From IMG/VR virus record IMGVR_UViG_3300048597_000392, positions 1 through 23,593 of that record: a stretch of 23,593 nt of DNA. One strand, given 5' to 3'. Below are positions 836 through 23,593 of the stretch, piece by piece. The notes under the pieces are model-generated. The model worked only from the letters and a program-made list of their open reading frames with translations. It made no database searches and was not told the DNA's origin. Both the position numbers and the translations under genes were made by a program. Origin of the DNA: a virus. The stretch's first letter is position 1; each line of letters opens with the position of its first letter.

Positions 836-1050
836 CCGGACTTGCGCTGGGCGAGGAACCAAGCCGCAACGGGATCCACCTGCATGAGGTGAGCGGGCAT
901 CGGTTCTGGGTCCGGCCACTGCCCGGTCTCATCCGCGATCTTGCGTCTGCGATCCAGTTCAGCCTGCGCGCTAGGTACCCCGGTCGAGGCCATGTCCCGG
1001 AGTTCGAAGATGTCCAGGTAGGGGACGTGCTCAGGACCGAGACATGTCAC
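832..1050 (-). CDS. Hypothetical protein in the portal/MuF block
   Basis: The GTG at 1050 overlaps the stop of the upstream MuF gene (GTGA), with a purine-rich stretch (caggggtgg) just before it. It encodes 72 residues beginning MTCLGPEHVPYLDIFELRDM, with a central acidic/basic helix (AQAELDRRRKIADETGQW) and a C-terminal PVAAWFLAQRK. There is no membrane segment or recognised motif. Tight overlap with genes on both sides indicates a polycistronic minus-strand message with portal and MuF. A small head-assembly accessory role is possible but is only inferred from position. Confidence 0.6.
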   Translation of the reverse strand: MTCLGPEHVPYLDIFELRDMASTGVPSAQAELDRRRKIADETGQWPDPEPMPAHLMQVDPVAAWFLAQRKSG

Positions 1051-2564
1051 TGCGACCACCCCTGTTCCCGACCTACGCGTGCGACCCACCCGGGGCGCGT
1101 GGCTGGGTCTCCCCACACCCATTCCACGAACGCTTCGGCCACCATCTCCACAGCGTTCTGCTTCCCGTAGGCCCTCGTCATTTCCCCCACCAGTTCGTTG
1201 TGCAACTCCTCAGCCCGTGCCGTGTACCCGTGCCTGTCCACGGTATGCCCCGCTTCATGGGTCATCAACCCGGTGAGGTAGTCCGGTGATGCCTTCCAGC
1301 CGTCGACGACGCCCATGGCCTGGGGGTCGTGGATCCGATCGCCCCAGGAGCCGATGAAGTTCCGGTTCATCGTGATCTGGCGACCACCGATCTTGGCCCA
1401 GGCCCCCGCGGAGGGAATCTTCGGCGTCTCCCCCACCACGATGGTGTACCCGTCCGTGAACTGACTGGTGGTCCGCAGCGACGGCGGCCACCTGCTCATC
1501 GTGGAGCGCAGCGCGTCGGAGAGCCGTTGGGCGACCTGCGCACTGCCCGGCACGCTCTGGTGGATCCGGTACTGGTGCAGCCCGTCGCTGTACAGGTCCG
1601 CCTGCTTCAGCGAGTCGATGTCCGCTTCGCGTTGCCCCTGGGTGGTGGCGGGCTGCGCCCACTTCCATTCCTCGGTACTGATCGGGGTCACGGCGTCCCG
1701 CATCCGGGGCACTGCGCGCATCGGGTCGGGCTGCTGCCCCCGTGGTGCGGGGCCACGGCCGCGGCGCGCCCGTTCCTGGGTGCGGGCGAAGGGGCTGGTG
1801 GTGTACCGGTCCATGGTGCCGGTGGCGTCCCATGCGGCGGCGGCCTGGTCGACGAGGGCGCCGACGTCGCTGCTCGGGTCGAGGTACCCGGTCAGGGGTG
1901 TGCCGCGGGGCACGGCGAGGGTGCGGCAGCGGCACCACGGGTGGTAGGGGCCGACGCGTCCTTGGGCGGTGCGCTGGCTGGTGTAGACGGGGCCGCGGGA
2001 GGCCAGGAGCAGGCACCAGGGGCAGCCGTTGGTGGCGGGGATCCGGGCCCAGCCCAGGCCCGCGGCCTGGAGGGTGTGTTCGTGGGCGGTGCGCGCGGTG
2101 CGGGCCCCGATCCCGGCGGCGCCGCGGCCGGCGCGCTGCCGGGCGTGCTGCAGCGCCTGCTCGGGTGCGGCCCCGGCGGCGATCCGCTGCTTGGCCTCGA
2201 TCAGGACCGTCAGCCGCAGCTGCGCGGCGGTGCCGGCGGCGTCCGGGAGCAGCCCCGGCGGCGGGCCGGTGACGGTGGACAGGCCGCCGGCGGGGTCGGC
2301 GCCCCACGCTGCGGCGGCGTCACCGGCGACCGAGGCGGAAGTGGCTGCGGCGGTCCGCCACGCCGCGGCCAGTGCCGCGACGGCGGCGGGTTCGGCGGCG
2401 GTGTAGGTGTCGTCCAGGCGGCCCGGGGACAGGACGTTGACGAGGGCGTCGACGGCGGCGACCGACCGGGCCCGCACCAGCGCCAGGGTCCCGGCGTGCC
2501 GTTCGGCGGCGGCCACCGCCCCCACCGGGACGTCCGCGGTCAGCACCCCCGGCCCGATCGCCAC
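1047..2564 (-). CDS. MuF-type minor capsid protein with C-terminal zinc metallopeptidase domain
   Basis: 505 residues from GTG 2564, placed 2 nt after the portal stop; other starts nearby are possible and no strong Shine-Dalgarno sequence is seen. Residues about 115-220 carry the MuF/head-morphogenesis signature: helix LIEAKQRIAAG, then CPWCLLLASRGPVY (C181, C184) and YHPWCRCRTLAV (H208, C211, C213), a likely metal-binding cluster. Residues about 315-505 form a second domain with HEAGHTVDRHG: H436, E437 and H440 make an HExxH zinc motif, and Glu residues in VEMVAEAFVEW (473-481) are candidates for the third ligand. MuF proteins join the portal-proximal head and may be injected with the DNA. 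C-terminal enzymatic or toxin domains on MuF proteins are known in temperate phages. The C-terminal half is visibly less GC-rich than the N-terminal half, suggesting domain acquisition. Confidence 0.85.
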   Translation of the reverse strand: MAIGPGVLTADVPVGAVAAAERHAGTLALVRARSVAAVDALVNVLSPGRLDDTYTAAEPAAVAALAAAWRTAAATSASVAGDAAAAWGADPAGGLSTVTGPPPGLLPDAAGTAAQLRLTVLIEAKQRIAAGAAPEQALQHARQRAGRGAAGIGARTARTAHEHTLQAAGLGWARIPATNGCPWCLLLASRGPVYTSQRTAQGRVGPYHPWCRCRTLAVPRGTPLTGYLDPSSDVGALVDQAAAAWDATGTMDRYTTSPFARTQERARRGRGPAPRGQQPDPMRAVPRMRDAVTPISTEEWKWAQPATTQGQREADIDSLKQADLYSDGLHQYRIHQSVPGSAQVAQRLSDALRSTMSRWPPSLRTTSQFTDGYTIVVGETPKIPSAGAWAKIGGRQITMNRNFIGSWGDRIHDPQAMGVVDGWKASPDYLTGLMTHEAGHTVDRHGYTARAEELHNELVGEMTRAYGKQNAVEMVAEAFVEWVWGDPATRPGWVARVGREQGWSQ

Positions 2565-2566
2565 GT

Positions 2567-3991
2567 TCAGGCGCCGTACGCTGCTGCCTGGGCGGCCGCG
2601 GCCTGCGCCTGCTCCGCCGCGGCCAGGGCCAGGACCCGGTCGATGGCCTGCGGGCTCCACCCGAACGTCTCCAGCAGCGCCGCCAACGGCAGGCCCGCCT
2701 GCCGCAGCTTCAACATCGCGTCGGCGACGGCGCCGGGGGAGCGGACCTCGGTGTTGCGCCACACCACCTCGAGCTGGTCGTCGTCGGCGACCTGCGGCAC
2801 GTCCGCGGCGCGGGCGGCCAGGCGCACCACCTGCTCCCACGCCTCCCCCAGGTCCAGCTGGCGGCGCCGGACCTTCGCCGCGAGGCCGGACTCCGCCGCC
2901 AGCAGGGCCTCCGCGGACGGGGGGTTCGCCGACCCGCCCAGCAGGTAGTGGGCGGGGGTGCGGGTCACCGACGCCAGGTGCTTGATGTCCTGCTCGACGG
3001 CTTCCACGATGGGGCGCAGGTCGGTGGCGGCGAAGTCCCCGAACTCCGCGGCCGGGTCCTCGGCGGTCCACAGCAGGTCCGCGCCGTACCGGAACGGCGC
3101 CGGCCCCGGCACCGGCAGGCCGTCCGGGCCGAGCACCGGTTCCCCGGTGTCGGGGTCGAGCGTGTCGGGCAGCCGGATCCCGGTGGCCCACCGCTGCCGG
3201 TACGCCCCGAACTTCCCCGCGGTCAGCCGGCCCAGCACCGTCTCGGTGATCCGGTCGATCGCGGGCAGGTGCGCCTGCAGGTCGGACACGCCGTCGCCGC
3301 GCAGGTCGGGCAGGTTCGCGATCCGCACCACCGGGCAGCCGCCGAGGGTGTGGGCGGCGGCCTCCACCGGCACCCACGCCCCCGAGGGGGCCAGGTCGAT
3401 GCTGTCCACGGGGTCGCGCCACCAGCGGACCACCCGCAGGGCGGGGGCGCGATGGGACCGAGGCGCGGGCCGCGCCCACGTGCGGGCCTCGTCCGGGCCG
3501 TACCACGCCAGCAGCTCCACGCCGCCGGCGGTCCAGGTGTGCACGGCCTCGGCCAACGCCCACGGGCCGCTGCCGGCGCGGACCCCGATCGTGTCCCGGG
3601 AGTCCAGGCCCCGCACCGACGCCCCGCCGGCGGCGGCGGGCCACACCAGCACGTAGGAGGCTCCCGACACCAGGGCGTCGACGTGGACCGCGTTCTGCCG
3701 GGCGTCCAACGCGCTGCCCTGCCACAGCGCCCACGCCGCCGCGGACGCCTGCGACCCGGCGGTGCAGTTCACGCCCTCCACCACGAGCCGTTCGGCGACG
3801 GCGTCGACCACCAGGGCCCCCCACGCGGTGCGGGCCAGGTCCACCAGCCGGCGCAGCTCCTCGCTGGCCTGCCGCGGCACGTGCGGCAGGGCGCTGCGGC
3901 CCGCGTAGTACTCGTGCAGGACGTCCAGGCGGGCGGCGTCGGCGCGCAGGTCCTGCAGCAGGGACGTGGCGCGGGACAGCGGATCGGTCAT
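2567..3991 (-). CDS. Portal protein (SPP1 gp6-like)
   Basis: 474 residues from ATG 3991. It shows the usual portal layout: an N-terminal helical region (LDVLHEYYAGRSALP), a middle beta-rich section, the long helix and clip section around IDRITETVLGRLTAGKFGAYRQRWATG, then VEAVEQDIKHLASVTRTPAHYLLG, a pattern I associate with actinophage portals, and an Ala/Gln-rich end. The portal forms the dodecameric vertex through which terminase pumps DNA. It is the first gene of a minus-strand unit (portal, MuF, three small genes) although the terminase and all other head genes are on the plus strand, which is unusual. Identification is from length, motif pattern and its place next to MuF. Confidence 0.85.
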   Translation of the reverse strand: MTDPLSRATSLLQDLRADAARLDVLHEYYAGRSALPHVPRQASEELRRLVDLARTAWGALVVDAVAERLVVEGVNCTAGSQASAAAWALWQGSALDARQNAVHVDALVSGASYVLVWPAAAGGASVRGLDSRDTIGVRAGSGPWALAEAVHTWTAGGVELLAWYGPDEARTWARPAPRSHRAPALRVVRWWRDPVDSIDLAPSGAWVPVEAAAHTLGGCPVVRIANLPDLRGDGVSDLQAHLPAIDRITETVLGRLTAGKFGAYRQRWATGIRLPDTLDPDTGEPVLGPDGLPVPGPAPFRYGADLLWTAEDPAAEFGDFAATDLRPIVEAVEQDIKHLASVTRTPAHYLLGGSANPPSAEALLAAESGLAAKVRRRQLDLGEAWEQVVRLAARAADVPQVADDDQLEVVWRNTEVRSPGAVADAMLKLRQAGLPLAALLETFGWSPQAIDRVLALAAAEQAQAAAAQAAAYGA

Positions 3992-18206: not shown

Positions 18207-18258
18207 CGGTGGCGCGTCGGAAATGACAGGGGTGTGATTGGGCCGACGGGAGGACACG

Positions 18259-19944
18259 GTGCAGCTCGCGTCCGTTCAACCCCACGCAGGGACCACCGTT
18301 TCGGACGTGGGCAGCCTTTTCGGGAATGCACTCTTCTACGGGGACAACCTGCCCATCCTGCGCGACCAGATCGACGCCGAGTCCGTGGACCTCGTGTACC
18401 TGGACCCGCCGTTCAACTCCAACGCGAACTACAACGTGCTGTTCAAGCAGTCCGACGGGGCCCCCGGCTCGGCGCAGGTCCACGCCTTCGAGGACTCCTG
18501 GCACTGGGGCCCGGAGGCGGAGCGGACCTACCACGACCTGATCCACGGCGGGTCCACCGAACTCGCCGACCTCGCCGAGGCGCTCAGGACGATGCTCGGC
18601 ACCAGCGACATGCTCGCCTACCTCGTGATGATGGCCCCCCGCCTCGTGGAGTTGCGGCGGGTGCTGAAGCCGACCGGCTCCCTGTACCTGCACTGCGACC
18701 CCACCAGCAGCCACTACCTGAAGATGCTGCTGGACGCGATCTTCGGCCCCCGCAACTTCCGCAACGAGGTCATCTGGAAGCGCACCGGTGCCCACGGCGC
18801 GGCGAAGAAGTTCGCGCCGGTCCACGACGTGATCCTGCTCTACGGGCGGGGTGGGACCACCGTCTGGAACCGCCAGTTCCACCCCTACGACGAGTCCTAC
18901 CTGTCCACGAAGTACAGGTTCGACGACGCCCGAGGCCGTTACAGGCTCATCACGCTCCAGCCTCCCGGGCGGCGCAACGGCGCAACCGGTCAGCCCTGGC
19001 GCGGGTTCGATCCGGACAGGAAGGGGATGCATTGGAGGTTCCCTCCGCACCGCCTGGACGAACTCGACGAGGAGGGGGTCATCGTCTGGGGACGGCCGGG
19101 AACGACCCCTCAACTCAAGCACTACTTGGACCTCGAGGCCGGGGTACCGGTCCAGGACGTCTGGACTGACCTCCCTCCAGTGAACTCGCGCGCCGCCGAG
19201 CGGATCGGCTACCCGACCCAGAAGCCCGTCGCCCTGCTGGAGAGGATCATCAGGGCGTCCAGCAACCCCGGCGACCTCGTGCTGGACCCGTTCTGCGGGT
19301 GCGGCACCACCGTGGACGCGGCCCAGCGACTCGACCGCAACTGGATCGGCATCGACATCTCGTACCTGGCCATCGACATCATCGACAAGAGGCTGAGGAA
19401 GGTCTACGGCGACTCCGTCGCGGCGACCTACGAGATCAAGGGCAGCCCGCACGACATCGAGGGGGCGCGGGCCCTGGCGGTGCGGGACAAGTTCGAGTTC
19501 GAGCGGTGGGCGGTGTCCCTGGTGGACGCCCAGCCGAACTCCAAGCAGGTCGGCGACAGGGGCATCGACGGCGTGGCCAGGTTCGCCACCGGCCCGAAGA
19601 CGTATCGCCGCATCCTCGTGAGCGTCAAGGGCGGTGCCAACAACCCCGGCTTCGTCCGGGACCTCGCTGGCACCGTGTCCGCCAACCGAGCGGCGATGGG
19701 AATCATGGTCACGCTGAACCCGCCGACGAAGGGGATGCTGGAGGCTGCCGCATCGGCCGGGGTGTACCGGCACGTCAACGGCAGGACGTACCCCAGGGTC
19801 CAGATCATGGCCGTGGCGGACCTCCTCGGGGGCAGGACCCCCGACCGACCCTCGACGCTCATGCCGTACGTCGAGGGCGAGTCTATGACCGAGGAGCCAG
19901 AGGAAGGCGGGCAGGGACGCCGGCGCGACCTGCGGGGCGCGTAG
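18259..19944 (+). CDS. DNA methyltransferase (beta-class N4/N6) fused to a restriction-endonuclease-like domain
   Basis: 561 residues from GTG 18259, chosen for gggagg 5 nt upstream; a TTG at 18238 would add 7 residues. Motif IV VYLDPPFNSN (47-56) precedes motif I DPFCGCGTT (343-351): the beta-class order of amino-methyltransferases with the target recognition region between them. Residues about 408-530 form a second domain: FEFERWAVSLVDAQP, GDRGIDGVARF (D434, D437) and ILVSVKGGA (K457), which fits a PD-(D/E)XK or Mrr-like nuclease pattern. The methylase would protect phage DNA from host restriction; the nuclease domain may cut or only bind. It follows the late operon on the plus strand and faces the minus-strand lysogeny region. 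No specificity can be predicted. Confidence 0.85.
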   Translation: MQLASVQPHAGTTVSDVGSLFGNALFYGDNLPILRDQIDAESVDLVYLDPPFNSNANYNVLFKQSDGAPGSAQVHAFEDSWHWGPEAERTYHDLIHGGSTELADLAEALRTMLGTSDMLAYLVMMAPRLVELRRVLKPTGSLYLHCDPTSSHYLKMLLDAIFGPRNFRNEVIWKRTGAHGAAKKFAPVHDVILLYGRGGTTVWNRQFHPYDESYLSTKYRFDDARGRYRLITLQPPGRRNGATGQPWRGFDPDRKGMHWRFPPHRLDELDEEGVIVWGRPGTTPQLKHYLDLEAGVPVQDVWTDLPPVNSRAAERIGYPTQKPVALLERIIRASSNPGDLVLDPFCGCGTTVDAAQRLDRNWIGIDISYLAIDIIDKRLRKVYGDSVAATYEIKGSPHDIEGARALAVRDKFEFERWAVSLVDAQPNSKQVGDRGIDGVARFATGPKTYRRILVSVKGGANNPGFVRDLAGTVSANRAAMGIMVTLNPPTKGMLEAAASAGVYRHVNGRTYPRVQIMAVADLLGGRTPDRPSTLMPYVEGESMTEEPEEGGQGRRRDLRGA

Positions 19945-20455: not shown

Positions 20456-20926
20456 CTAGTAGTCGATGCTGACGGCCGTCGGATCGGCGTGCAGCGCCCG
20501 GTAGTAGTCGCGCATCGTGTCCAGGCTGATGCGGTCCGTCCCGGCCTGCCGCAGCGGCTTGCCTGCGCGGGCCTCGATCCACGGCCGGTCCGCGTGGGTC
20601 ATGCTGACGAGCTCGTGCGGCTCGAACTGGTCGTACGCGGCGAGGACGTCGTTCAAGAACGGGGCGTCGTAGTCGTCGATCAACTCATGGTCCCCGCCGA
20701 CGGTTGCGACGGTGTACCGGCCCCGGTGCCGGTCGTACACCTCGCGGACCACCGGCCCGTTCACCCACGCCTCGATCGGCTCCTCGAACAGCTGCACGTC
20801 CCGCAGGGCCAAGGACCACGCCTGCGCGTAGTAGACGATCTTCTGCAGCTTGAACGCCGACATCGGGCCGTCGTGCCTGCGCAGCAGGTACTCGGCGACG
20901 TCCACTGCCCTGTACACGGTCTCCAT
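20456..20926 (-). CDS. Panacea (SocA-like, DUF4065) antitoxin-type protein
   Basis: 156 residues from ATG 20926, with AAGGGGGG 4 nt upstream. It starts with the family's usual N-terminus (VDVAEYLLRRHDGPMSAFKLQKIVYYAQAWSLAL), followed by LFEEPIEAWVNGPVVREVYDRHRG, the hallmark EAW-x-GPVV-x-EVY region, then FLNDVLAAYDQFEPHELVSMTH and PWIEAR. Panacea domains neutralise unrelated toxins in PanAT modules, and SocA acts as a ClpXP adaptor for its toxin. The frame is open upstream, without a stop, to GTG 21205, so a longer 249-residue form is possible (see 20927-21205). The order here is antitoxin then toxin, downstream of the integrase. Confidence 0.8.
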   Translation of the reverse strand: METVYRAVDVAEYLLRRHDGPMSAFKLQKIVYYAQAWSLALRDVQLFEEPIEAWVNGPVVREVYDRHRGRYTVATVGGDHELIDDYDAPFLNDVLAAYDQFEPHELVSMTHADRPWIEARAGKPLRQAGTDRISLDTMRDYYRALHADPTAVSIDY

Positions 20927-21205
20927 CGTGCCCCCCTTGATGCTGGTCTGGCGACCGTAAGTGTGCGGTGCCGGTCCGACCCGTCCCGCTGGAGGGGTCC
21001 GGCGCACTACCCGCGCCCCCGCCGCGGCGCCGGGACGGCCGGGGGCCGCCCACCGTTCCGCCCACACCGCCTCCCCGTCCCTGACCGGGCACCGCCACAC
21101 CACCCACCCGTCGGCCGTCTCCTGCACCAGCTCCACGAACCCGGCCGCCCCGTCCTCGAACCGGCACCCGTCCAACGGCCCACCCACCCACACGTACCTG
21201 GTCAC
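20927..21205 (-). other. In-frame 5' extension of the Panacea ORF, resembling a separate small phage protein
   Basis: GTG 21205 overlaps the integrase stop (GTGA) and opens a frame that runs without a stop into the Panacea gene. Its first ~60 residues (RYVWVGGPLDGCRFEDG, FVELVQETADGWVVWRCPV, EAVWAERW) look like the small 'VGGPLDG' proteins of actinophages, which normally end on their own. A Pro/Gly/Arg-rich stretch then leads to the Panacea Met. Either the small gene lost its stop and fused, giving a 249-residue protein, or Panacea is started internally. The internal ribosome-binding site favours at least some separate Panacea. Confidence 0.5.
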
Positions 21206-22041
21206 GCCGCCACCAACAGCGCGGACCGTGGGGCCGGCACCACGTGCCCGGCCGCAGCCCGCAGCCGCTGCCTGGGCACGCCGACGTAGATCTGCGTCGT
21301 CGCCGGTGAGGCATGCCCCAGCAGCCGCTGCACCGCCAGCAGGTCCCCCGTGCCGTCATGGACGGTCGAGGCGAACCAGTGCCGCACCTCGTGCGGCGCG
21401 CAGCCCGTCGCGGCCTTCACCCGTCGCCGCAGGGTGCAGGGATGCAGGTGGCCCGTGAACCGGCCCGGGAACACCCAGCCCGGCCCACGCTCGAGCAGCG
21501 CCCGGCGCAGCGCCGGGTCCTCGATCGGCAGCCACCGGGACCGATCCCCCTTCCCGCGCACCGTCACCCCGCGGCCGTCGGCGTCGAGGTCCTCCCGCCG
21601 CAGCGCCACGGCCTCCGCGCACCGCAGCCCGAGCCGGGCCAGCACCAGCACCATCAGCGCGGTGTCCTCGTCCCGGACGTCGAGGCCGGCGGCCACCTGC
21701 GCGTGCGACGCCGGCCTCGCCGTCCCGGGGACCTGCCGGACCGGCGCGATCCCCAGCATCGGGTTCCGCTTCCGCTTCACCACCTTCTCCGCGACCAGCA
21801 GCCGGTACATGGAGCCCAGCGCCATCCGCGCGGACTTGTGGCTCGACGCCGACCACGACTGCTCTGCGATCCACGCCTTCACGTCCCGGTGCCCGGCCTG
21901 GACAGGGTCCACGCCGTTCACTGCGCACCACCGGCCCCACCGGCGCAGGTAGCTGCGCCACGTCCGCACCGTCTCCGGTGACAGCCGTCGGGACCGCAGG
22001 TCGGTCTCCCACAGGCCCATCGCCTCATCCCACCGCATCAT
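21202..22041 (-). CDS. int: Tyrosine site-specific integrase, C-terminus with ssrA-like -ALLVAA
   Basis: 279 residues from ATG 22041, selected because ggaggtgg is well spaced upstream; a TTG at 22092 would add 17. The N-terminal ~100 residues form a SAM-like core-binding domain (AMGLWETDLRSRRLSPETV, ALGSMYRLLVAEKVV). The catalytic domain has R140 (LGLRCAEAV), K164 (RGKGD), H217 and R220 (HEVRHW), H243 (LLGHAS) and the nucleophile Y252 (TQIYVG). There is no N-terminal arm-binding domain of obvious size. The protein ends SALLVAA, similar to the -ALAA end of ssrA tags, so it may be a ClpXP substrate. It probably recombines the fMet-tRNA core at 22775-22814. It is served by the TTGACA promoter at 22112-22141. 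Confidence 0.92.
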   Translation of the reverse strand: MMRWDEAMGLWETDLRSRRLSPETVRTWRSYLRRWGRWCAVNGVDPVQAGHRDVKAWIAEQSWSASSHKSARMALGSMYRLLVAEKVVKRKRNPMLGIAPVRQVPGTARPASHAQVAAGLDVRDEDTALMVLVLARLGLRCAEAVALRREDLDADGRGVTVRGKGDRSRWLPIEDPALRRALLERGPGWVFPGRFTGHLHPCTLRRRVKAATGCAPHEVRHWFASTVHDGTGDLLAVQRLLGHASPATTQIYVGVPRQRLRAAAGHVVPAPRSALLVAA

Positions 22042-22111
22042 CCGCACCACCTCCACCGGCCATTTCGATTCCTCATTCCCGTTGCCGTGCAATAGGAATC
22101 CTGCCGAGGGC

Positions 22112-22450: not shown

Positions 22451-22648
22451 TCATGCGCCCTCCCCGGGCAGCAGCCCGCCGGGCGCGTGGTACCGCGCGA
22501 ACAGCTCGGCGTGGATCTCCGGGAACGCCGACCGGAGCGCCTCCATGTTGAAGGTGTCCGCCTTGCGCATCGCAGCCATGACCAGCGCGGCGAACGGCCA
22601 GTCGCGCTGTGCGATCTCGAGGGACGCCTGGTAGTCGTACCAGCTCAT
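22451..22648 (-). CDS. Small conserved-looking phage protein (MSWYDYQ type)
   Basis: 65 residues from ATG 22648, which overlaps the last base of the long repressor form's stop (TGATG). The sequence MSWYDYQASLEIAQRDWPFA, ALVMAAMRKADTFNMEALRSAFPEIHAEL, ARYHAPGG follows a pattern I have seen in actinophage hypothetical proteins. It is helical and soluble, with function unknown. Its start is coupled to translation of the unintegrated (phage-form) repressor. After integration the two genes would lie at opposite prophage ends, so its expression could be switched by integration. Confidence 0.65.
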   Translation of the reverse strand: MSWYDYQASLEIAQRDWPFAALVMAAMRKADTFNMEALRSAFPEIHAELFARYHAPGGLLPGEGA

Positions 22649-23019
22649 CACGCCGCCGTTTGCAGGTCGCGGCCGCCGGGCAGCACGACGAGTGCTGGAA
22701 CGGGGCGGGGGGAGCGGGGCTGCCATGCGCGCCGCGCCCCGGCGATCAGCGTGAACGCGGGACGGGACGCTCGCAACCCAGAGGTCGCAGGTTCAAATCC
22801 TGCCCCCGCTACCAGGAAGAGGCGTCCGGGTTCCACTCCAAGGAACCCGGACGCTTTCTCTATATCCCGGGCCAGCCAGGCCACTTCGCCGCGCAGCTTC
22901 TTGTTCAGCGACGACCTCGAGATGCCCATGTGCTGGCACATCTGGTCCTGCTTGATCCGTCGAAGCCACAACAGCTCGTGGACGTTGGCGCCGATCACCT
23001 GGTCTGTCTCATCGTCCAC
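22648..23019 (-). CDS. Immunity repressor, phage (long) form with attP inside the gene and -LQTAA end
   Basis: 123 residues from GTG 23019; no strong ribosome-binding site, so the start is tentative. Residues about 12-68 are a Cro/C1-type helix-turn-helix: NVHELLWLRRIKQDQMCQHMGISRSSLNKKLRGEVAW, then IEKASGFLGVEPGRLF. Residues about 70-82 (VAGAGFEPATSGL) are the well-known translation of an antisense tRNA 3' end, i.e. the attP core. The last 41 residues (phage-only) are low-complexity and end DLQTAA, an ssrA-like end. Integration at an fMet tRNA gene should truncate the protein to about 82 residues. It is divergent from the terminase operon, so it may directly control it, and a palindrome overlaps its start. 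Confidence 0.8.
   Translation of the reverse strand: MDDETDQVIGANVHELLWLRRIKQDQMCQHMGISRSSLNKKLRGEVAWLARDIEKASGFLGVEPGRLFLVAGAGFEPATSGLRASRPAFTLIAGARRAWQPRSPRPVPALVVLPGGRDLQTAA
22775..22814 (+). other. attP: attP core: 3' half of an initiator (fMet) tRNA gene
   Basis: From AACCCAGAGGTCGCAGG onward the 40 bases contain the 3' anticodon stem, the variable loop, a complete T-arm (GCAGG, loop TTCAAAT, CCTGC), the acceptor 3' strand CCCCGCT and ACCA. I recognise this as the 3' end of an actinobacterial fMet tRNA. The anticodon CAT is absent (CTCGCAA instead of CTCATAA) and there is no 5' half, so it is an attachment core, not a tRNA gene. Integration would restore the host tRNA from its own 5' half and this 3' half. 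Confidence 0.85.
22822..22865 (+). terminator. Rho-independent terminator downstream of the attP tRNA end
   Basis: GCGTCCGGGTTCC (22822-22834), 7-nt loop, GGAACCCGGACGC (22842-22854): a perfect 13-bp stem, followed by TTTCTCTATAT. It begins 8 nt after the tRNA ACCA. On the minus strand the same bases are repressor codons for about residues 56-66. In a lysogen it would terminate transcription of the reconstituted tRNA. Confidence 0.8.
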
Positions 23020-23042: not shown

Positions 23043-23168
23043 ATGATGCTCCCGTTCGGCCTGGCCACCCGCGCCCGCCTGCACGTCACCGTCGCCGACG
23101 ACACGACGGCCCCGGCGGCCCGGACCGCGGTGAGGACCCGCGCCGACCCGCGGCTGAAGGCCGTATGA
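23043..23168 (+). CDS. 41-residue ORF upstream of terminase
   Basis: Starts at ATG 23043 (a second ATG follows directly), with cgagagg 8 nt upstream, and ends in a TGA that overlaps the terminase ATG (ATGA). The peptide begins MMLPFGLATRARLHVTVADD and is basic, with no recognised motif. It occupies the usual place of a small terminase subunit but is far too short for one. It may be a real leader-type gene coupled to terminase, or a remnant. Confidence 0.45.
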   Translation: MMLPFGLATRARLHVTVADDTTAPAARTAVRTRADPRLKAV

Positions 23169-23593
23169 CGGCGCTGCCGCCGACCCTGGGCTTCGTCGCC
23201 GCCGAGTGGATCGAGGCCTGGTGCGTGCACGGCCCCGGCGATGTGCAGGGCCGCCCCGCTGCCCTCACGCAGGAGATGCTGCGGTTCCTGCTGGAGGCGT
23301 ACGAGCTGGACCCGGGCACCGGCCGGCGCCGGGTGAAGCGGGCCATGCTGGTCCGCCCGACGGGGTGGAGCAAGAGCGAGCTGGCCGCGTGGATCGTCCT
23401 GTTCGAGGCGTTCGGCCCGGCCCGGTTCGAGGGGTGGGCCGCCGACGGCAGCCCGGTCGGGCGGGCCGTGCAGACCCCGATCATCCGGATCGTGGCCACC
23501 GAGGAGAACCAGGCCGGGAACATCTACGACGTGGTCCTGCACAACTGCCAGGAGGGTCCGTTGGCGCCGCTGGGGCTGGACGCCGGGCTGACC
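23165..23593 (+). CDS. Terminase large subunit, N-terminal part (cut by window end)
   Basis: 143 residues from ATG 23165 to the window edge. The N-terminal helix region (AAEWIEAWCVHGPGDVQGRP) and QEMLRFLLEAYELDPGTGRRRVKRAMLVRPTGWSKSELAAWI contain an unusual Walker A-like motif, RPTGWSKS (64-71); the RPxGWxKS form is typical of actinophage terminases. IIRIVATEENQAGNIYDVV follows (about 107-124), a conserved segment after the P-loop. This is the packaging ATPase. With the C-terminal piece at 1-179 it suggests a genome whose ends meet inside this gene's missing middle. Confidence 0.88.
   Translation, partial: MTALPPTLGFVAAEWIEAWCVHGPGDVQGRPAALTQEMLRFLLEAYELDPGTGRRRVKRAMLVRPTGWSKSELAAWIVLFEAFGPARFEGWAADGSPVGRAVQTPIIRIVATEENQAGNIYDVVLHNCQEGPLAPLGLDAGLT

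What the first reader, a model, noticed from the sequence alone, without database searches (positions are those of the whole stretch)
22822..22865. Repressor codons double as a tRNA terminator on the opposite strand
A perfect 13-bp stem with a T-rich tail lies 8 nt after the tRNA ACCA end. The same bases encode repressor residues just before the core (KASGFLGVEPGR). The DNA therefore carries three overlapping functions in about 90 bp: repressor coding, attP/tRNA 3' end, and a terminator that would protect the prophage from tRNA readthrough and stop that transcription from colliding with the repressor message.
Basis: partly seen in the sequence, partly recalled or inferred. Interest (0 to 1): 0.7.

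Follow-up and report, generated by a model that had tools for sequence, protein, structure and literature searches.

The report
tRNA terminator hidden inside repressor gene
In this bacterial virus, the stretch of the repressor gene next to the integration site also spells, on the other strand, a stop signal for the host tRNA gene the virus inserts into; relatives carry the same arrangement with different letters, so the overlap looks selected rather than accidental.

Summary
A perfect 13-bp stem (22822-22854, 7-nt loop) with an interrupted T-tract lies 7 nt after the CCA of a 40-nt initiator-tRNA 3' end, inside the codons of an HTH repressor on the - strand. It is the longest perfect inverted repeat in the window. 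Only 2 of 20,000 synonymous recodings fold as well; none has the stem. The T-tract uses codons (ATA, AAA) that ten other window genes never use.

The setting is an integration-dependent immunity cassette of the mycobacteriophage BPs kind: rep then int, attP inside rep, C-terminal -AA ends. Joined to a host tRNA, the repressor shortens from 123 to 82 residues at a stop made by the tRNA anticodon.

Of 34 such repressors, 14 have a stem of at least 9 bp just after the tRNA end, against 1 of 232 control windows, with a T bias on the tRNA strand. Two prophages show the lysogen state: restored tRNA, terminator in rep codons, truncated rep, and a hairpin at the far end that fits the host's displaced terminator. 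BPs-like and some other relatives lack the stem, so it is recurrent, not obligatory. Termination itself is inferred, not measured. No mention was found in the held literature.

The parts
22648..23019 (-). immunity repressor gene (rep), viral form, 123 aa, GTG start, HTH domain, ends LQTAA
   Evidence: Pfam BetR 3.6e-6, PHROG 4583 transcriptional repressor 5e-8; relatives annotated as immunity repressors
22775..22814 (+). attP core: 3' part of an initiator tRNA (AACCCAGAGG...GCTACCA), antisense to rep codons ..VAGAGFEPATSG
   Evidence: core identical to a host fMet gene; CTCAT + core exact in 17 of 98 Actinomycetes-class genomes searched; no complete tRNA in the window
22822..22854 (+). perfect 13-bp stem-loop (7-nt loop) of the proposed tRNA terminator; antisense of rep codons KASGFLGVEPGR
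22855..22866 (+). interrupted T-tract TTTCTCTATATC, antisense of rep codons GAT ATA GAG AAA (Asp-Ile-Glu-Lys)
   Evidence: three of four codons rare or unused elsewhere in the window
22648..22774 (-). viral-only 3' part of rep, lost from the repressor on integration; ends in LQTAA (ssrA-like tag by resemblance)
   Evidence: joining core to a host fMet gene gives an 82-aa product ending GAGFEPATSGL; same end in a real prophage
21202..22050 (-). tyrosine integrase gene downstream of rep, ends LLVAA (start codon uncertain)
   Evidence: Pfam Phage_integrase 2.3e-17, PHROG 1 integrase 1e-36, translation

Best explanation
The window carries an integration-dependent immunity cassette (rep then int, attP inside rep) that targets the host initiator-tRNA gene. 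The first phage DNA after the tRNA 3' end carries a phage-supplied intrinsic terminator written into the antisense of rep codons. Integration restores the tRNA and pushes the host's own tRNA terminator to the far end of the prophage; the rep-embedded hairpin then ends tRNA transcripts, so that host transcription does not run antisense through rep into the prophage. The same recombination joins rep to the tRNA, whose anticodon supplies a TGA, so that an 82-residue repressor replaces the 123-residue tagged form. Shown by sequence: anatomy, structure in excess of coding need, recurrence in relatives, strand-specific T bias, lysogen junctions. Inferred: termination in the cell, its benefit, and tag-driven degradation in this phage.
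For: Stem far beyond what the protein requires (2 of 20,000 recodings) and T-tract made of codons unused elsewhere. 14 of 34 repressors with an antisense tRNA end have a stem of 9 bp or more within 50 nt of it, against 1 of 232 control windows in the same genes (Fisher 3e-13); stems mostly begin 4-15 nt after the discriminator base; 4.6 T of 12 after the stem on the tRNA strand against 2.7 on the rep strand, p 0.001. Prophage L117 (Marisediminicola senii, tRNA-Asn) has a different stem in the same codons of a homologous rep. Genome G378: complete tRNA-fMet, then a stem with TTTTTCGTTTTT inside a homologous rep that ends at the anticodon; second core copy 29.4 kb away beside an integrase match and followed by another hairpin. 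Cellulomonas triticagri shows the same at tRNA-Asn. Six uninvaded fMet genes have stems of 10-21 bp at similar distance.
Against: No RNA data. The T-tract is interrupted and the simple scan does not call the site. 20 of 34 relatives lack a strong contiguous stem, among them BPs-like Hotshotbaby7, so the feature is not required. Controls in the synonymous test are weaker but not null. Relatives are not fully independent. The lysogen of this very phage has not been found.
Confidence: 0.78

Rival explanations
1. The stem is a by-product of G+C-rich coding sequence: the repressor protein happens to need these codons and nothing selects for the structure.
For: Window is very G+C-rich; about half of the relatives have no strong stem; some control segments also fold better than recodings.
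Against: Synonymous null, unused codons in the T-tract, enrichment exactly after the tRNA end with strand-specific T bias.
Confidence: 0.05
2. The inverted repeat is a DNA site, for example an arm-type integrase site, an excision-factor site or a repressor operator, not an RNA terminator.
For: Perfect 13-bp inverted repeat beside attP; attP of other tyrosine integrases carries flanking protein sites.
Against: Stem sequences differ between relatives with related integrases; T follows on the tRNA strand only; PMC9262239 states that these systems do not require arm-type sites.
Confidence: 0.07
3. The hairpin acts in the rep-int mRNA (attenuation, stability or translation of rep) rather than on tRNA transcripts.
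For: Its reverse complement folds almost as well in the rep message (-31.0 against -32.7 kcal/mol).
Against: The T-tract is on the tRNA strand; the position follows the tRNA end and not the repressor protein: linker in most relatives, last HTH helix in the window and L117.
Confidence: 0.06
4. Origin by capture: the stem is a remnant of a former host's own tRNA terminator taken up with the tRNA end by imprecise excision, and rep grew over it.
For: Native fMet genes have similar stems at similar distance; one genome (G032/L143) shares CCGGGTTC in its native stem.
Against: Only 1 of 394 genomes has even that 8-mer after a matching tRNA end. In relatives the stem lies in alignable HTH or linker codons. 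This concerns origin and is compatible with terminator function.
Confidence: 0.15

Closest known systems
Integration-dependent immunity of mycobacteriophage BPs and relatives (PMC4557955, PMC9262239; Broussard et al. 2013, not held)
   Same: rep then int on one strand, attP inside rep overlapping a tRNA 3' end, truncation of rep on integration with a stop made at the host junction, -AA ends on repressor and integrase
   Different: initiator tRNA as target and a strong terminator-like stem in rep codons; the BPs-like Hotshotbaby7 has no such stem. The held papers on these systems that I searched do not describe one
Gordonia phages Emperor, GMA5, Wizard and Mycobacterium phage Purky cassettes
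   Same: 13-14 bp stem with a short loop 5-9 nt after the tRNA discriminator base, inside rep codons, then a T-rich stretch
   Different: other tRNA cores; the stem lies in a linker rich in P, D and G, not in the HTH domain
Arthrobacter phage Galaxy attP (fMet core)
   Same: fMet core followed by a hairpin and T-rich stretch supplied by the phage
   Different: no gene is annotated over the hairpin; in the window it is inside repressor codons

Membership tests
Integration-dependent immunity (BPs type) | repressor and tyrosine integrase genes adjacent on the same strand, rep upstream | tested here: met
   rep 23019-22648, int 22050-21202, both on -
Integration-dependent immunity (BPs type) | attP core inside the repressor reading frame, overlapping a tRNA 3' end | tested here: met
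   40-nt fMet 3' end antisense within rep; use as attP is inferred
Integration-dependent immunity (BPs type) | integration truncates the repressor at a stop made at the host junction | tested here: met
   by joining sequences for this phage: 82 aa; seen in prophages of relatives
Integration-dependent immunity (BPs type) | ssrA-like C-terminal tag makes the viral repressor unstable | not testable with these tools
   rep ends LQTAA and int LLVAA; stability not measurable here
Integration-dependent immunity (BPs type) | short form active in repression, long form not | not testable with these tools
   needs an immunity assay
Intrinsic (Rho-independent) terminator | stable G+C-rich hairpin in the transcript | tested here: met
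   13-bp perfect stem, -39.6 kcal/mol, z -6
Intrinsic (Rho-independent) terminator | run of U directly after the stem | tested here: inconclusive
   TTTCTCTATAT: T-rich but interrupted; scan with at least 5 T in 8 does not list it. Most native fMet stems in uninvaded genomes also lack a U-run
Intrinsic (Rho-independent) terminator | transcript 3' ends at the site | not testable with these tools
   no RNA data

The most novel reading that the evidence does not exclude
Integration-dependent immunity phages repeatedly embed a phage-supplied tRNA terminator in the antisense of repressor codons next to attP, so that one stretch of about 90 bp is at once repressor coding, integration site, tRNA 3' end, degradation switch and terminator, and the terminator helps to keep the repressor expressed in the lysogen by stopping antisense transcription from the tRNA.
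Probability: 0.5. Interest if true: 0.65.

Novelty: new variant of a known kind. Interest (0 to 1): 0.5.

Why it matters
Integration-dependent immunity is known for packing several functions into its attP core. This adds one more, with a simple test: synonymous changes that break the stem leave the protein intact. It also raises a general point: a phage that inserts at a tRNA 3' end separates the tRNA from its terminator and may have to supply a new one. Where attP lies inside a gene, that terminator has to be written into codons, which leaves a measurable mark (unused codons, excess antisense structure) that can help to find such cassettes and attP sites in metagenomic contigs.

Tried and rejected
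Close relatives by rep protein in viral contigs: none. Exact fMet-core pattern with a base other than A next: none; the pattern with A and then not T gave L019 and three Arthrobacter phage contigs. Chance from G+C content: disfavoured by the recoding null. Capture of a host terminator: only 1 of 394 genomes shares even 8 nt of the stem after the same tRNA end. Rfam: only a weak tRNA match at the core, nothing at the stem. Generic terminator scan: does not list this site, kept as evidence against. Strict pair-by-pair covariation is not claimed: the stems of the window and of L117 occupy the same codons but their centres differ by about 1.5 nt. Pipp looked like a stem case by eye but fails the strict stem rule (loop too long) and is counted as stemless. 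Literature: the only held paper with both 'integration-dependent immunity' and 'terminator' means a tail terminator protein; the founding 2013 paper and a companion are not held, so a mention there cannot be excluded.

Full report
WHAT IS THERE. The window is a virus record of 23,593 bases, high in G+C, with tail, capsid, portal and terminase genes. Near its right end, on the - strand, lie a 123-residue HTH repressor (23019-22648) and, downstream, a tyrosine integrase (22050-21202). The repressor frame runs antisense through a 40-nt copy of the 3' part of an initiator tRNA (22775-22814). CTCAT plus this copy occurs exactly in 17 of 98 genomes drawn from the class of Cellulomonas. ARAGORN finds no complete tRNA in the window, as expected for a phage attP.

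THE STEM. Seven nt after the CCA lies a perfect 13-bp stem with a 7-nt loop (22822-22854) and then TTTCTCTATAT. The + strand RNA folds at -39.6 kcal/mol, z -6.0. It is the longest perfect inverted repeat in the window. To ask whether the protein alone could force it, I recoded DIEKASGFLGVEPGRLF 20,000 times with the window's codon usage: 2 recodings folded as well and none had a perfect stem of 13 bp. With a 60-nt segment and 1,000 recodings p was 0.002. The T-tract is the antisense of GAT ATA GAG AAA; in ten other genes of the window ATA is used 0 times of 121 Ile and AAA 0 times of 62 Lys, and in the rest of rep Ile is always ATC and Lys always AAG. Both stem and T-tract look selected beyond the protein.

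THE CASSETTE. The nearest annotated relatives of the repressor are repressors of Mycobacterium and Gordonia phages, upstream of a tyrosine integrase on the same strand, with a tRNA 3' end antisense in the C-terminal part of rep and tails ending in -AA. This is the integration-dependent immunity of phage BPs (PMC4557955, PMC9262239): integration removes an ssrA-like tag and leaves a stable, active repressor. Joining the window's core to a real host fMet gene gives an 82-residue repressor ending ..VAGAGFEPATSGL, stopped by TGA from the anticodon region. The window's rep ends LQTAA and its integrase LLVAA. Tag function is inferred from these ends. L019, another contig with an fMet core in rep, has only VAA beyond the same point.

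RELATIVES. Among 34 repressors with an antisense tRNA end, 14 have a contiguous stem of at least 9 bp (up to 2 G-U, loop 3-9) within 50 nt of the tRNA end; 1 of 232 control windows further inside the same genes does (Fisher 3e-13). T is more frequent after the stem on the tRNA strand than on the rep strand (4.6 against 2.7 of 12, p 0.001). Synonymous nulls for 32 of them combine to 4e-14 next to the tRNA end; the controls are much weaker but not null (3e-4 and 0.04), so part of the signal is general structure in these genes. Clustering at 60% identity leaves 30 groups, 14 with a stem; at 50%, 23 and 12; at 40% most merge, so the cases are not fully independent. Stemless members include BPs-like Hotshotbaby7, Typha and IdentityCrisis.

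SAME PLACE, OTHER LETTERS. The stem follows the tRNA end rather than a place in the protein. In most relatives it lies in a linker rich in P, D and G. In the window and in the Marisediminicola senii prophage L117, which lack that linker, it lies in the last helix of the HTH domain, in the same codons but with a different stem sequence.

LYSOGENS. In genome G378 (unnamed) a complete tRNA-fMet is followed 8 nt after the CCA by a stem of the ATCCCCCTC-TTCG-GAGGGGGAT kind and TTTTCGTTTTT, inside a homologous rep that ends ..VAGAGFEPTTSGL at the anticodon. A second copy of the tRNA end lies 29.4 kb away beside an integrase match, and behind it is a hairpin that fits the host's displaced terminator. 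In Cellulomonas triticagri a tRNA-Asn is followed by a 14-bp stem in rep codons; a second tRNA-Asn end beside an integrase match on another contig is followed by a strong hairpin. Six native fMet genes without such a prophage have stems of 10-21 bp beginning 7-22 nt after the discriminator base. So integration does move a terminator away, and the phage brings one.

HOW IT MOST LIKELY WORKS. Shown: anatomy, coding excess, recurrence, strand bias, junctions. Inferred: RNA polymerase leaving the tRNA gene stops at the rep-embedded hairpin, so that the tRNA gets a normal 3' trailer and rep is not covered by antisense transcription. Not shown: any transcript end, any effect on repressor level. More than half of the relatives lack a strong stem, so the feature helps or is one of several solutions, not a requirement.

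NOVELTY. The immunity system is known, and hairpins after attP cores outside annotated genes occur (Galaxy). I found no description of terminators inside the repressor codons of these systems, but the founding paper is not held.

Noticed in passing
window 1047-3991: Head maturation protease (1047-2564) and portal (2567-3991) lie on the - strand, while capsid, tail genes and the terminase start (23165-23593) are on +: an inversion of the portal-protease block in place, or a misassembly. The contig ends inside the terminase gene.
   Followed up: partly
L019 8743-9069: An fMet-core repressor whose viral form extends only by VAA beyond the point where the tRNA anticodon would stop it: a minimal removable tail. 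Its stem also lies in rep codons.
   Followed up: partly
G378:C1 127741-129869: The integrase match of the fMet prophage is split into two parts about 1.3 kb apart, suggesting an insertion and a prophage that can no longer excise.
   Followed up: no
L116 5246-5319 and L150 about 3080: In Cellulomonas triticagri the phage-side and far-end tRNA-Asn copies differ by a paired change in the T-arm (G-C against A-T), so the phage copy keeps tRNA pairing while differing from the other copy.
   Followed up: no
window 18238-19944: A DNA methyltransferase (N6_N4_Mtase 8e-45) with a C-terminal Mrr-like nuclease domain match (1.4e-5) in one frame near the integrase.
   Followed up: no
window 20456-21103: A SocA/Panacea-domain protein (9e-16) beside the integrase, a domain of antitoxins; partner not looked for.
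   Followed up: no
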